DNA of 64,000 nucleotides from Dryococelus australis (lineage: Eukaryota > Arthropoda > Insecta > Phasmatodea > Phasmatidae), in assembly GCA_029891345.1 (NCBI GenBank), contig CM057009.1, forward strand, positions 298,755,466 through 298,819,465, given 5' to 3'. Position numbers and translations under genes: made by a program. This document shows, one piece after another, positions 23,764 to 28,629 of the stretch; the first letter of the stretch is position 1; each line of letters opens with the position of its first letter. The notes below the pieces were generated by a model. That model was not told where the DNA came from, searched no databases, and saw nothing but the letters and a program-made list of their open reading frames with translations.

Positions 23764-24646
23764 GTCTATTGCAGATCTTGGCGCAACTCAATTTAAATAA
23801 AATTCAACCAATTTCAAGATAAATTCAAACAAATTTATATTCCCCATCAAAATCAATCATATTTAAGGTCAAAATCAAATATAAATTTTCAACTTGTGTT
23901 CATTCTTTGTGTGTGGTTCTTTAAAAACTCATTTTCAAGCTAAGTCATCACATTTTTGATGAAATTCCAAGAATTTTCATACTTTTCTTGTGATATAATT
24001 TTTACTTATTGATTTGACTTTCAAATTGAAAGTAAATATTTAACCTTTTTGACATAAATTTAGCTTCATTCACTCTGAAAATGGACCACTGATCAAAGAG
24101 TGAACAAAGAATGTTTTTTAAAAAAGTCCGAGTAATTGAAAAATGAAGATTTGGGTCAAATTATCTTGATTTTGGAGGTGAGATTGACGAGAAGAATCAT
24201 GTTTGAAGAACAGATTGAAAGATTGTTGCTTAAATGTGAGAAATATGCGTGAATTTTAGTTAAATTAATGAGTTCCGCCGATATATGCAATAGTCCTCTA
24301 CTGATTTATATAAAATGTGTACATGTATACACAAGAGAAAGAAAAAAAATTCACTTAGATTTTAAAAAGTGATTTTTATTCGATAAAACAACTCAACCAA
24401 ATATATAAAAAATTGTATTAAAGTATCGAAACAATTTCTCGTTTTTGTAAAATCGTTTACATTATCTATTTAATCAAATAAAAAATTTGTATGTTTCAAG
24501 TGATATTTTCTTTCAAATAATCATAAGTTAAATTTCTTGGCTAATTAAAACATCATTGCAAATTTTACCAGCCTCAACAGCTTTTTTAAAACCTACACTG
24601 ATTTTTATACTTGTTTTGTCTTTAACTACTGCTAATTTTCTATATA
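23764..24646 (+). repeat. Left terminal inverted repeat of the nested element
   Basis: Matches the reverse complement of 27823-28629 along its whole length, with substitutions and small indels and about 110 bp of extra sequence at about 24345-24440. The inner 200 bp (24445-24646) is an inverted copy of the 3' end of the capsid-like gene (27823-28020). Confidence 0.85.
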
Positions 24647-24689
24647 TTATGTGTTATCTGCATTTAGTTTTAATTTATTGCCCATTAAC

Positions 24690-25423
24690 TACATCGAAAT
24701 TATAGATGACACGGAGGATGCAAATATTGTATCAATTAAATATAAATGCTACATTAAAGCTGGAGAAACATCTTTTTCTTAATCTAATACCTCATTATCT
24801 ACCATCCCTAAGAATATAAATATAGAAGAATTGGGTTTAGTAAAAACTGCAAATATTATAGCTTTTGAAAAAGAATAAATATTTCCCACAAACTTTCTCC
24901 ATATACAATTAAAGAAATAAATATTCTTAATACACCTTATCTACTGTCTACTAAGAAAAGAAAACAAGAATAGGATAATTTAAGTATACAAAAAAGAAAA
25001 TTAGAATATTTAAAATAAAACTATTAGCATACAAGAAGAATATGAATGTGTGCTAGAGAAAGAGCAAAAAATTACGGAAAGGGAATAAGAATTAGTTAAT
25101 TATTTTAGTAAATGCTGGAAAGATTTAATTATAAAAAACTGTTATAAACTCTATAAATTTGTGGTAAATAATAAAGAAAAATACATTTACATAGGCACAC
25201 TTTGCGAAAATAATGGAGTTAAACATGTTTATTATATTAAAGGTTTATTTAAAAATAAATTAGCAGGAATTAGTAAAAATAGAGATTTATTAATAAAAGA
25301 GGGCTTTGTTTTTAAAGCATACAATGGTTTAGAAATAATCTATTATCCAACAGAAGAACCTTTTATGGAAATAAAAACCATTGGCAGAAAATATCTTAAT
25401 GGACATACATATCCAAATATATA
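24690..25423 (+). pseudogene. Virus-like element gene 1, part a (broken, unknown function)
   Basis: Plus-strand coding remnant with several stops before 25100 and one open stretch at 25161-25424 (87 codons). Visible content is hydrophilic and lysine-rich: IYIGTLCENNGVKHVYYIKG, then a segment ending in MEIKTIGRKYLNGHTYPN. The part upstream is glutamate- and lysine-rich and could form a coiled coil (KEQKITEREQELVNYF at about 25060-25110). I recognise no catalytic motif. It may be the C-terminal part of a replication-type protein whose N-terminal part lies on the other strand at 26230-25745. That is an inference from arrangement only. Confidence 0.4.
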
Positions 25424-25753
25424 ATATATGGAGTTATAGGTGGCAAATATAAAATAAGAAATAGATAATACAAAAAAGAGGATATAATTGGAAATGTGCA
25501 AATAACAGATTGTAAAAGATTAGAAAATTTGCAAGATGGATTATATTTAATTATTTCCAATATTTCCATTAAAACTTATCGTGGAAAGGAAATATATATT
25601 TTAAATTTCAAAAACATACAAGATTGTTTTTGCTCTAATTATTGGTTGGAAAAAGAAATAGAAGAAAAAATAGATCTAATTATAAGATTAAAGTTAAGCT
25701 CGATAAAATTAAAACAATATACAACGTGGTTTCCAAGTGGGCTTGTTAATTGA
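25424..25753 (+). pseudogene. Virus-like element gene 1, part b (broken, unknown function)
   Basis: It continues in the same direction after stops at about 25423 and 25469. The open stretch 25496-25753 contains LQDGLYLIISNISIKTYRGK and SNYWLEKEIEEKID. This looks like a compact beta-rich domain ending in a charged helix. It closes with a stop at 25751-25753, where it meets the minus-strand remnant tail to tail. No family can be named with confidence. Confidence 0.4.
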
Positions 25754-26230
25754 CAAATAAATTTACTGTAAATCATAACTCTAGAATTAGATTTTATCCA
25801 CGTTAAACAATCTCATCCAGCAGAATTATTATTAGTAACTATTACATTGCACTCATTTTTATATTCAGCTTGCATACAACAATTTAAATTAGCTACCAAA
25901 AAGTTAATCATCTCTTCTTTGTTAAAAATTCCAGCGATATCATGTGATATATCCAAATCTAATAAATAGCAGTGTTATTTCCGAAGTTCTTATAACATTT
26001 CCGGAAACTCTGTTAATAATGTTTCTAACTTTACATCTACTAACTTATAAGGAATGACAATTGGATTTTAATATTTTTGTCTAATTATTTCTATATCTGT
26101 GCTAATAATTTGCTTAACACCATTAATTATTTTAATATTAGAATGTAATAAATATGGCATTTTTGCTTTAACTCCGTGTCTTGCTAAATAAAATTTAAAA
26201 AAATTAGCTCTAAAAAACTGTTAAAATTTC
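25745..26230 (-). pseudogene. Virus-like element gene 2 (possible replication protein N-terminal part, broken)
   Basis: The minus strand from about 26230 down carries a frame with at least three internal stops (near 26068, 26008-25994 and 25813). Recognisable pieces are FYLARHGVKAKMPYLL, then LDLDISHDIAGIFNKEEMIN. A segment CLTWIKSNSRVMIYSKFICQ follows, ending near 25745. I recall similar arrangements in uncharacterised proteins of virus-like elements in invertebrate genomes, but I cannot verify that here. The frame runs into the region that is coding on the plus strand, which suggests an inversion breakpoint near 25725-25745. Confidence 0.4.
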
Positions 26231-26264: not shown

Positions 26265-27027
26265 TCTTATTTTTCATTTCTCCTTCAAAATTGAAAAAAA
26301 AATCTGTTGTTTTAAAAAGCATATGTTATCGCAAAAGGGTTCTGGTATTGGCTTAGATTCTTCCCATTTTTGCTCTCCATATGTGTAGATAATATCCCCA
26401 ATATTTGAAAGAAGATTATTATTATTTAAGTTTTTGGTTAATAACAATAATCCAAATGTTTCATTGGTTGGTTTAATTTTATTTCCTAGCAACTCTGTAA
26501 TAGAGTATTTGGTTGTAGACAGATTGGCTGCAACTTCCACTTAAGAGTTTACAATTATATGCACACATCCAAAAAGTAGTAGAAACTATGTTGGTAATAG
26601 TTGGTAAAATTAGGTAAAATTTGGAAAATGTGAAAGTAGTTGAAAGTGGAGTAATTGAAAGCAAGCACGGTGCTTTTCGTACCTATATGACAAATAAAAA
26701 ATCACCATCAATTTTTACTTTTGTATCACCAATTTCAAAACCGTGGCAAACTCCTCGCTAACCTAATTTATCATCAATAACAAATAAATTTTCAGAAATA
26801 TAGTGCCCTATTCAAATCTGGTGACTTTGGGCGGAATAATTCTCTTTCAAAAAAGGTGTTTCTTCTGGTGCTGGTGGATAATCTACATTTTTTGCAGCAA
26901 CGGGTACTAGTGCTGTTATATTTTTTTAATTTTCTTCACTTACTTGTTATACTTTTTTGCCAAGATTTTGTAATTCACGAATTAATGGTAGATCTTTTTC
27001 CTTGTTTTTTCTCATTGTGCCTCAAGG
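26265..27027 (-). pseudogene. Virus-like element gene 3 (structural or accessory protein, broken)
   Basis: Starts at a minus-strand ATG at about 27015 (MRKNKEKDLPLIRELQNLGK), which predicts a basic coiled N-terminus. Stops follow near 26953 and 26929. Then come a compact segment IDDKLG and IGDTKVKIDGDFLFVI (about 26790-26685) and a final open stretch at 26540-26274 rich in asparagine. Stops and a frame change near 26530 and 26680 break it. The middle part (G-x-K-x-IDGD) recalls a short conserved protein of invertebrate virus-like elements, possibly a penton or minor structural protein. This is a tentative family-level inference. Confidence 0.4.
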
Positions 27028-27159
27028 TTTTTTTTTTATAATTTCTATACTTCTCGATGAGCAATTTAACTCGAGAAACACACTCTGAATCATCTATTTA
27101 TATAATTTTCTTCTTATAAATAAGTTATAAAAGCAGTGAGAGTTTTAAGAGAGACACTT

Positions 27160-27983
27160 TTCTTCCAACTGATCAAACGAGGGAGAATTTAAATATTTAC
27201 AATAACAGAATCGAGTTTGATATTCCTTTAGGAGATGGCTGTTCTTTTCCAAACGAAGCTTATGTTTTGGAAGAATATCGCCTACTAACGAGAGATACAA
27301 TTGGAATTGAGGCAAAATATGACAAAAGTAGATAATATTGATGTTTGTTCTGATATTATTCCATTTCAGTTTTCTAGAGTAGACATTTCAAAACATGGAC
27401 AGCTTATTGAGGCTGTTGATAATCCAGGAATAATTTCAACAATTATGAATATTTTGCTAAGATCACCAGGTGAACAAAATAATTTAGAGTCTACTGGTGT
27501 TGATAGTAAATTTGGAGTAAAATCTGTTCATAATGATAAAATAAATGAAATAATGTATCCATTAGGATATTTGTTTGGCTTTATTCGTGATTATAATGAA
27601 GTTTACTTGAAAGGTGGTTATAAAATCACTTTTCTTCCGAAATTCGTCTGATAACGATTGTTTATTTGTTTATGAAACTAAAAAAGCAGGTGGTTCAGTT
27701 GATAAAACTTATGCTGATCCAGGTATAATTTTTATTCAAAAATTAGAAATTTTGTGGCCTATTGTTGAATACGAAGCTAACACATCAATTGCATTTAAAG
27801 AAAAGATATGTAGTTGACTACCTATATAGAAAATTAGCAGTAGTCAAAGAGAAAACAAATATAAAAATCAGTGTAGAATTTAAAAAAGCTGCTGAGACTG
27901 GTACAATTTGCAATGTTGTTTTAATTAGCCAACGTAATTTAACTTATGATTATTTGAAAGAAAATATCACTGAAGGTATATAA
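27160..27983 (+). pseudogene. Virus-like element gene 4 (capsid-like protein, broken)
   Basis: Three overlapping open stretches (27301-27651, 27614-27817, 27762-27983) give one protein-like path with frame shifts at about 27640 and 27800. Upstream coding-like sequence from about 27160 is separated by further frame changes. Visible segments are IPFQFSRVDISKHGQLIEAV, then MYPLGYLFGFIRDYNEVYLK, then IQKLEILWPIVEYEANTS. The PLGYLFGFIRDYNEV / LEILWPIVE spacing resembles a conserved protein of invertebrate Polinton-like and virus-derived elements that I believe to be a jelly-roll capsid protein, though I could not check this. The 3' end (27823-27983) is also present, inverted, in the left terminal repeat. 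Confidence 0.5.
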
Positions 27984-28629
27984 ATTTTTTATTTGATTAA
28001 ATGGATAATGTAAACAATTTTTTTCTTTGTCTTATATATACATGTACACATTTGATTAAAAATCAGTAGAGGACTATTGTATATCTCGGCGGAAGTCATC
28101 AATTTAACTAAAATTCACCCAAATTTCTCACTTTCAAGCAACAATTTTTCAATCTCTCCTTCAAAGATTATTCATCTCGTCAGTCTCACCCCCAAAATCA
28201 AGATAATTTAACCCAAATCTTCATTCTCAATTACCGGAACGTTTTTTAAAAACATACTTTGTTCACTCTTTGATCAGTGGTACATTTTCAGGGTGAATCA
28301 GGCTAATTTTATGTCAAAAAGGGTAAATATTTACTTTCAATTTGAAAGTCAGATCAATTAGTCAAAAATTATATCACAAGAAAAGTATGAAAATTCTTGG
28401 AATTTCATCAAAAATATGATGATTTAGCTTGAAAATAAGTCTCTAAAGAACCACACACAATGCGTGAACAGAAGTTGAAAATTGATATTTGATTTTGACG
28501 TTAAATATGATTGATTTTGAGTTGCTCTTTGTATGATTTGACGGGGAATTAGATATTTGCTTGAGTTTAGCTTGCAATTGGTTGAATTTTATTTAAATTA
28601 TTGAGTTGTGCCAAGATCTGCAATAGACG
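27823..28629 (-). repeat. Right terminal inverted repeat of the nested element
   Basis: Partner of 23764-24646. It includes the last ~160 bp of the capsid-like gene, then a non-coding stretch, ending in the shared terminus at 28629. It lacks about 110 bp present in the left copy. Confidence 0.85.

What the first reader, a model, noticed from the sequence alone, without database searches (positions are those of the whole stretch)
23764..28629. A virus-like 4.9-kb element with ~0.8-kb TIRs nested in a Tc1 transposon
The interruption of the Tc1 transposase is not random DNA. It is bounded by long inverted repeats and carries remnants of three or four genes in both directions. One gene has the PLGYLFGFIRDYNEV / LEILWPIVE pattern I associate with capsid-like proteins of invertebrate Polinton-like elements. 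No polymerase, integrase or ATPase is visible, so this may be a reduced, poorly described lineage. The sequence shows the TIRs and gene remnants; the family assignment is inference.
Basis: partly seen in the sequence, partly recalled or inferred. Interest (0 to 1): 0.78.

Follow-up and report, generated by a model that had tools for sequence, protein, structure and literature searches.

The report
Dead shortened copy of Polinton provirus
A 4.9-kb stretch inside a broken transposon is the decayed, heavily shortened copy of a virus-like mobile element (a Polinton relative) that is present in many copies in this genome; it is an old, dead member of a known kind, with one unexplained gene.

Summary
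An element of 4,879 bp (23757-28635) with ~0.8-0.9-kb inverted arms interrupts a Tc1-type transposase and is flanked by an imperfect 6-bp target duplication (GTCAAG/GTCTAG). Its ends (5'-AGTAGAGG) recur in other copies with unrelated flanks. One gene is a broken double-jelly-roll capsid gene (PF21738). In the 3.4-Gb host genome 126 of 126 scored PF21738 matches passed the cut-off (18,148 first-look candidates). Twenty fetched copies share the capsid DNA (86-88%); upstream they carry an rve integrase (12 of 20), phospholipase A2-like (18), Adeno_PX-like (16) and Bro-type (11) pieces.

So this looks like a dead, internally deleted derivative of a Polinton/Maverick (adintovirus-like) family rather than a lineage without integrase. 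About 445 bp are missing from its capsid gene, and the integrase block is absent. Its left arm contains an inverted copy of the right end, including the capsid gene's 3' end, perhaps by aberrant end replication. Unexplained: a gene (25.7-26.5 kb, minus) with metagenomic homologues but no known family, seen in 0 of 20 copies. The polymerase and the left half of long copies could not be examined.

The parts
22841..23756 (-). Tc1-type transposon, part of the transposase gene left of the insertion
   Evidence: PF01498 E 4.9e-7 on 23243-23803:-, just under cut-off; end repeat matches 28902-28935 (I10)
28642..28935 (-). Tc1-type transposon, part of the transposase gene right of the insertion
   Evidence: Minus-strand frame 28567-28881; end repeat I10. 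Reading it as the transposase N-terminus is recalled, not tested
23751..23756 (.). left target site duplication, GTCAAG
   Evidence: 5 of 6 match with 28636-28641; background 0.5%
28636..28641 (.). right target site duplication, GTCTAG
23757..28635 (.). whole element: internally deleted Polinton/Maverick derivative
23757..24646 (+). left arm: inverted copy of the right end, including a copy of the capsid gene's 3' end at 24470-24646
   Evidence: 91.3% identity without gaps to the right arm; capsid 3' end copy 178 bp, 90%; its match to the copies' right ends stops at 24646 in 16 of 20 and within 24641-24647 in 20 of 20
27823..28635 (-). right arm (TIR), beginning inside the capsid gene's 3' end
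24240..24303 (-). inner inverted repeat of the terminal motif in the left arm, so that the outer 547 bp has inverted ends of its own
   Evidence: D1, I7; short inverted matches beside many of the listed genomic copies
28064..28125 (+). inner inverted repeat of the terminal motif in the right arm
24647..25753 (+). gene remnants A (frame 25089-25421) and B (frame 25469-25750), no known family
   Evidence: Pfam, PHROGs and NCBIfam: only chance-level matches or none; viral contigs: no relative; 0 of 20 copies
25741..26540 (-). gene remnant C: frames 26277-26540 and 25606-26325; homologue of metagenomic proteins P0005-P0010; its 3' part is missing at about 25741
   Evidence: E 2.1e-50 to 3.1e-29; N-terminal piece 53% and 56% identical to P0010 and P0007; 0 of 20 copies
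26640..27021 (-). gene remnant D, shared with longer copies just upstream of the capsid gene
   Evidence: DNA match in 20 of 20 copies; protein piece of copy L030 matches 27009-26836 at E 1.3e-19; no Pfam match
27120..27983 (+). broken double-jelly-roll major capsid protein gene, with a frame shift near 27630 and ~445 bp missing at 27806-27812
   Evidence: PF21738 E 2e-4 on 27289-27651; frame change between 27623 and 27636; 431-464 extra bases at this place in 20 of 20 copies

Best explanation
The stretch is a dead, internally deleted, non-autonomous copy of a Polinton/Maverick (adintovirus-like) family that amplified strongly in this genome (confidence below is for this sentence). Shown: its ends, its imperfect 6-bp target duplication, its capsid gene and its place inside a Tc1. 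Inferred, about 45%: the rearranged 4.9-kb DNA formed during replication of a longer parent, when copying of an end jumped, so that the right end (TIR plus capsid 3' end) was also placed, inverted, at the left, and the middle (integrase block) was lost. Inferred, about 55%: the integrase of a longer relative then inserted it into the Tc1 in trans, leaving 6-bp duplications. It has since decayed without visible constraint.
For: Same ends: 5'-AGTA at the start in 14 of 15 distinct copies (rows kept only if the arm aligned from within its first 12 bases), with the match reaching base 1 in 12 of 15, and unrelated flanks. 6-bp target duplication, 5 of 6; 6-bp duplications and (AG)3 or (AGT)2 ends are the Maverick marks used in PMC8097293 (passages seen); AGTAGA agrees with (AGT)2 in 5 of 6. 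Capsid DNA is 86-88% identical in 20 of 20 fetched copies, and PF21738 is over the cut-off in 126 of 126 scored places. Longer copies carry rve integrase (PF00665 E 6e-10), PLA2-like (PF08398 E 7e-14), Bro-N (PF02498 E 2.2e-13) and Adeno_PX-like (PF05829 E 0.0011, under its cut-off) upstream of the capsid gene, in similar order. The window has ~445 bp less capsid gene than 20 of 20 copies, with 27806-27812 matching on both sides in most rows. The left arm matches the copies' right ends, capsid 3' end included.
Against: Genes A, B and C were found in 0 of 20 copies within the ~5.6 kb upstream of their capsid gene, so they are not shown to belong to the family. The left half and left arm of long copies were not seen. 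No polymerase was found; the search for one did not complete. The window capsid match is under Pfam's cut-off (21.1 of 27 bits), and a longer single-frame reading that included it gave no match. The target duplication is imperfect. The 20 copies were chosen as the closest to the window's capsid DNA, so they are not a random sample. Movement in trans and end-copying are inferred.
Confidence: 0.8

Rival explanations
1. A distinct small lineage (a satellite or virophage-like element of Polintons) that carries its own replication gene (C, perhaps with A and B) plus a capsid gene, uses Polinton-type ends, and depends on the big elements for integrase.
For: C has homologues on short metagenomic contigs and is absent from the 20 fetched stretches of longer copies. 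C holds stretches that recall replication initiators (recalled, not tested).
Against: Capsid, D and right end are ordinary members of the large family, 86-88% at DNA level for the capsid. A/B and C lie in opposite directions and C is cut short, which looks like rearrangement. Only one such copy has been seen, and the search for others did not complete.
Confidence: 0.15
2. A variant of the main reading: a full-length Polinton inserted first and shrank in place by deletions, with arm similarity kept by gene conversion.
For: The capsid deletion looks like an ordinary microhomology deletion. L008 has lost nearly its whole capsid body, so deletions are not unique to the window.
Against: In-place deletion does not by itself put an inverted copy of the right end, capsid 3' end included, at the left terminus with the target duplication intact.
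Confidence: 0.2
3. A variant of the main reading: the family's normal TIR is ~0.9 kb and already includes the capsid gene's 3' end, so there is no special inverted duplication.
For: Long TIRs are usual in Polintons (recalled); left arms of long copies were not seen.
Against: All 7 of 7 fetched best TIR matches outside the window (L002-L008) are right ends, 6 with capsid sequence and 1 with D next to the capsid 3' end. If left ends carried it too, about half should be left ends; but only the best were listed (40 scored of 3,344 candidates) and 7 fetched.
Confidence: 0.25
4. An ordinary cut-and-paste transposon or host gene fragments with accidental resemblance to capsids.
For: Weak single-piece Pfam score.
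Against: Capsid family with E-values down to 4.8e-89 in the same genome and in 0 of 14 control genomes; no transposase-type Pfam match in the pieces of the element that were scanned.
Confidence: 0.02

Closest known systems
Polinton/Maverick elements (polintoviruses)
   Same: Double-jelly-roll capsid, long TIRs with AG(T)-type ends, 6-bp target duplication; rve integrase in longer copies of the same family
   Different: This copy has no integrase match, is 4.9 kb long, and has a broken capsid gene; polymerase not seen in the family here (not searched successfully)
Adintoviruses (as described in PMC11071296, passages seen)
   Same: Adenovirus-like capsid genes with an rve integrase; a weak Adeno_PX-like match near the capsid block in a longer copy
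   Different: The defining polymerase with OTU-like domain and the integrase chromodomain were not tested
Defective genomes of linear viruses with inverted terminal repeats
   Same: Internal deletion and an end duplicated in inverted orientation (recalled general knowledge)
   Different: Here known only from one integrated fossil; no replication evidence
Virophages and polinton-like viruses
   Same: Small capsid-bearing dsDNA elements, some of which depend on others (recalled)
   Different: No helper, polymerase or helicase shown; the capsid belongs to the host genome's own Polinton-like family

Membership tests
Polinton/Maverick | 6-bp target site duplication | tested here: met
   GTCAAG/GTCTAG, 5 of 6, background 0.5%; imperfect, one copy only
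Polinton/Maverick | long TIRs with AG or AGT-type ends | tested here: met
   criterion from PMC8097293 passages; AGTAGA against (AGT)2: 5 of 6
Polinton/Maverick | double-jelly-roll major capsid protein | tested here: met
   window piece PF21738 E 2e-4, under cut-off; genome copies over cut-off in 126 of 126 scored
Polinton/Maverick | rve integrase in this copy | tested here: not met
   no match at E 0.01 of the L030 integrase piece inside window 23601-28800; so this copy is filed as a derivative, not as a complete Polinton
Polinton/Maverick | rve integrase in longer copies of the same family | tested here: met
   PF00665 E 6e-10; 12 of 20 copies, the query's own copy included
[quoted passage not shown]
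   feature named in PMC6431247 passages; genome search with PF03175 did not complete; the left half of copies was not obtained
Polinton/Maverick | packaging ATPase and adenovirus-type protease | tested here: inconclusive
   found in 83% and 74% of Polintons by PMC4028283 (passages); pieces in L031 and L029 look like them by eye (recalled), but Pfam gave no such match and PDB none for the L029 piece
Adintovirus | PolB with OTU-like domain; integrase with chromodomain | not tested
   definition seen in PMC11071296 passages
Adintovirus | adenovirus-like virion proteins | tested here: inconclusive
   Adeno_PX E 0.0011, 19.2 of 25 bits, in L028
Rolling-circle replication initiator (gene C) | catalytic endonuclease motifs or fold | tested here: inconclusive
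   no convincing Pfam, NCBIfam, PHROGs or PDB match; model mean pLDDT 50.3; fold matches not above background

The most novel reading that the evidence does not exclude
The 4.9-kb element represents a satellite of Polintons: it has Polinton ends and a capsid gene but swapped the integrase block for an unrelated, so far unnamed replication-type gene (C, perhaps continued by A and B), and spread with the integrase of its helpers inside its host genome.
Probability: 0.12. Interest if true: 0.75.

Novelty: new member of a known kind. Interest (0 to 1): 0.42.

Why it matters
As a single locus it is an ordinary fossil. The wider picture is more notable: one genome holds a large capsid-bearing Polinton-like family, including rearranged and deleted copies, which offers material to study how proviruses become non-autonomous transposons. 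Gene C belongs to an unnamed protein family with relatives in metagenomes and no profile match in the libraries searched.

Tried and rejected
No relatives of the capsid, A, B or C pieces in viral contigs: searches gave 13, 8, 82, 33, 16 and 8 pattern matches and no confirmed relative. None in phage records. None in GTDB prokaryote genomes for the C-family alignment (368 pattern matches, none confirmed). Protein database searches with the capsid piece found nothing (4 candidates; 10 candidates); I take this as a limit of the collection, which is inference. PDB: none for the capsid piece or the C-family profile; chance-level matches for C. PHROGs and NCBIfam: nothing convincing. Rfam 0 and tRNA 0 in the window.

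Codon-position test on the capsid first frame: differences at positions 1, 2, 3 are 10.2, 8.4 and 10.0% over all pairs of the 21 sequences (20 copies and the window), and 13.6, 8.3 and 8.8% for the window against 20 copies; singletons 64, 61, 65; variants shared by 4 or more rows 3, 3, 10. So no clear sign of constraint between copies, apart from a small excess at third positions among shared variants.

Considered and dropped: a DUF8207-like identity for gene D and an OB fold for B (both recalled; no supporting profile match for D, nor for B). The ten paper searches that ran did not turn up a description of this family in what I saw of their listings; that is a statement about those searches only. 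Papers: passages only of PMC8363768, PMC6431247, PMC4028283, PMC8097293, PMC11071296 and PMC4061559; abstract, section list and passages of PMC11071308; the rest as search listings.
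Full report
Observation. The interruption of the Tc1-type transposase is real and has sharp ends at 23757 and 28635. Its arms align over 23757-24646 and 28635-27823 with 91.3% identity outside gaps (715 of 920 columns identical, 137 gap columns; score 1033 against at most 49 in 50 shuffles). The element is A+T-rich (24-31% G+C by part) inside a Tc1 of about 50% G+C. The six bases on either side read GTCAAG and GTCTAG; 5 of 6 agree, no other length from 2 to 10 is comparable, and the background rate is 0.5%.

Ends in other copies. 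The TIR search in the host genome (3,415,067,245 bases, 646 contigs) gave 3,344 first-look candidates, of which 40 were scored; the 39 long matches besides the window's own are 82-86% identical. Copies were compared at their ends if the outer arm aligned from within its first 12 bases: 15 distinct copies (18 rows, three of them second fetches of the same places). Of these, 14 begin with AGTA at the aligned position and 12 match from base 1; the exceptions are L004 and L041 (begin AGTA but align from base 9 and 8) and L043 (diverged end). Their flanks are unrelated. These are Polinton-type ends: PMC8097293 uses 6-bp target duplications and (AG)3 or (AGT)2 end motifs for vertebrate Mavericks (passages); AGTAGA agrees with (AGT)2 in 5 of 6 bases.

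Capsid. The frame 27289-27651 matches PF21738 (double jelly roll-like domain), E 2e-4, 21.1 bits against a cut-off of 27. The same stretch inside a 253-residue single-frame reading whose second half is out of frame gave no match. In the genome PF21738 has 18,148 first-look candidates; 126 were scored and 126 exceed the cut-off, E 4.8e-89 to 4.2e-68, 11 of 126 without a stop inside the match; 0 of 14 control genomes ring. The window's capsid DNA itself has 4,671 candidates, 40 scored, the other 39 at 87-90%. Counts of candidates are not counts of copies.

What longer copies carry. Twenty of the 39 other places, the best-scoring ones, were fetched. All 20 share capsid DNA (86-88%) and D DNA. Oriented with the capsid gene on +, about 5.6 kb upstream was visible. 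Pieces found there by tblastn: D (19 of 20), PLA2-like (18), the protein with the weak Adeno_PX match (16), a coiled-coil-like protein (15), rve integrase (12), Bro-type protein (11) and matrixin (3), counting the copies from which the queries were taken. Pfam on single-copy pieces: PF08398 E 7e-14, PF00665 E 6e-10, PF02498 E 2.2e-13, PF05829 E 0.0011 (under its cut-off), PF00413 E 7.9e-27, and for the L030 capsid PF21738 E 1.7e-14. Pieces that look by eye like a packaging ATPase (L031) and an adenovirus-type protease (L029) gave no such profile match (PDB for the latter).

What this copy lost and rearranged. In all 20 copies 431-464 extra bases lie in the capsid gene where the window has none; in most rows the blocks on either side overlap at 27806-27812 in the window, the sign of a microhomology deletion. 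The integrase, PLA2-like, Adeno_PX-like, Bro, matrixin and coiled-coil pieces have no match at E 0.01 inside window 23601-28800. The left arm includes a copy of the capsid 3' end, in inverted orientation; against the copies' right ends its match stops at 24646 in 16 of 20. The seven TIR matches fetched besides the window's own (L002-L008) are all right ends: six with capsid sequence, one (L008) with D directly next to the capsid 3' end. Left ends of long copies were not seen, so 'inverted duplication of the right end' is the better-supported reading, not a proven one.

Gene C and A/B. The minus-strand gene C has six metagenomic homologues (E 2.1e-50 to 3.1e-29, 43-56% identity), and its separate N-terminal frame matches the start of two of them. 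No library searched names the family, and the model is too poor to use. C, A and B are absent from 20 of 20 fetched stretches and from the other loci held apart from the two that are the window itself. C and A/B point towards each other and C is cut short at about 25741. That A and B continue C as one protein is a guess from recall. This is the chief loose end.

Age and state. The arms differ at 8.7% of ungapped sites and the capsid copies at a median of 10%, with singletons spread evenly over codon positions: consistent with one old burst followed by neutral decay. The window copy is dead.

Mechanism. Shown: shared ends, an imperfect 6-bp duplication, loss of the middle, inverted arm content. 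Inferred: formation by template switching during replication of a linear parent, and insertion by a helper's integrase. Relatives with integrase pieces in the same genome make helper-driven insertion plausible, not demonstrated.

Verdict. A known kind, with one unexplained gene.

Noticed in passing
L027:6158-6706 (minus); also L039 and L042: A matrixin (matrix metalloproteinase, PF00413 E 7.9e-27 in L027) coding stretch sits upstream of the capsid gene in 3 of 20 Polinton-like copies.
   Followed up: partly
L030:611-1189, L033:8514-8927 (minus), L028:1139-1582: Bro-N and DUF3627 proteins, known from large DNA viruses (recalled), lie in the longer copies.
   Followed up: partly
24240-24303 and 28064-28125: The outer 547 bp of each arm has inverted ends of its own, so each arm could fold back or could move like a small inverted-repeat element; similar short inverted matches lie beside many listed copies.
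   Followed up: partly
46395-51831: Frames on + look like a retroviral-type element with protease, integrase zinc finger and an envelope-like frame (by eye; not tested).
   Followed up: no
37702-41490 and 54648-57391: Large inverted pair of diverged repetitive blocks, up to 961 bp at 81%.
   Followed up: no
L031:4378-4629 (fetched strand): A shortened Tc1 relative lies beside the capsid region of another Polinton-like copy.
   Followed up: no
58899-59342: Near-identical tandem repeat with an offset of ~86 bp, 96-98%.
   Followed up: no
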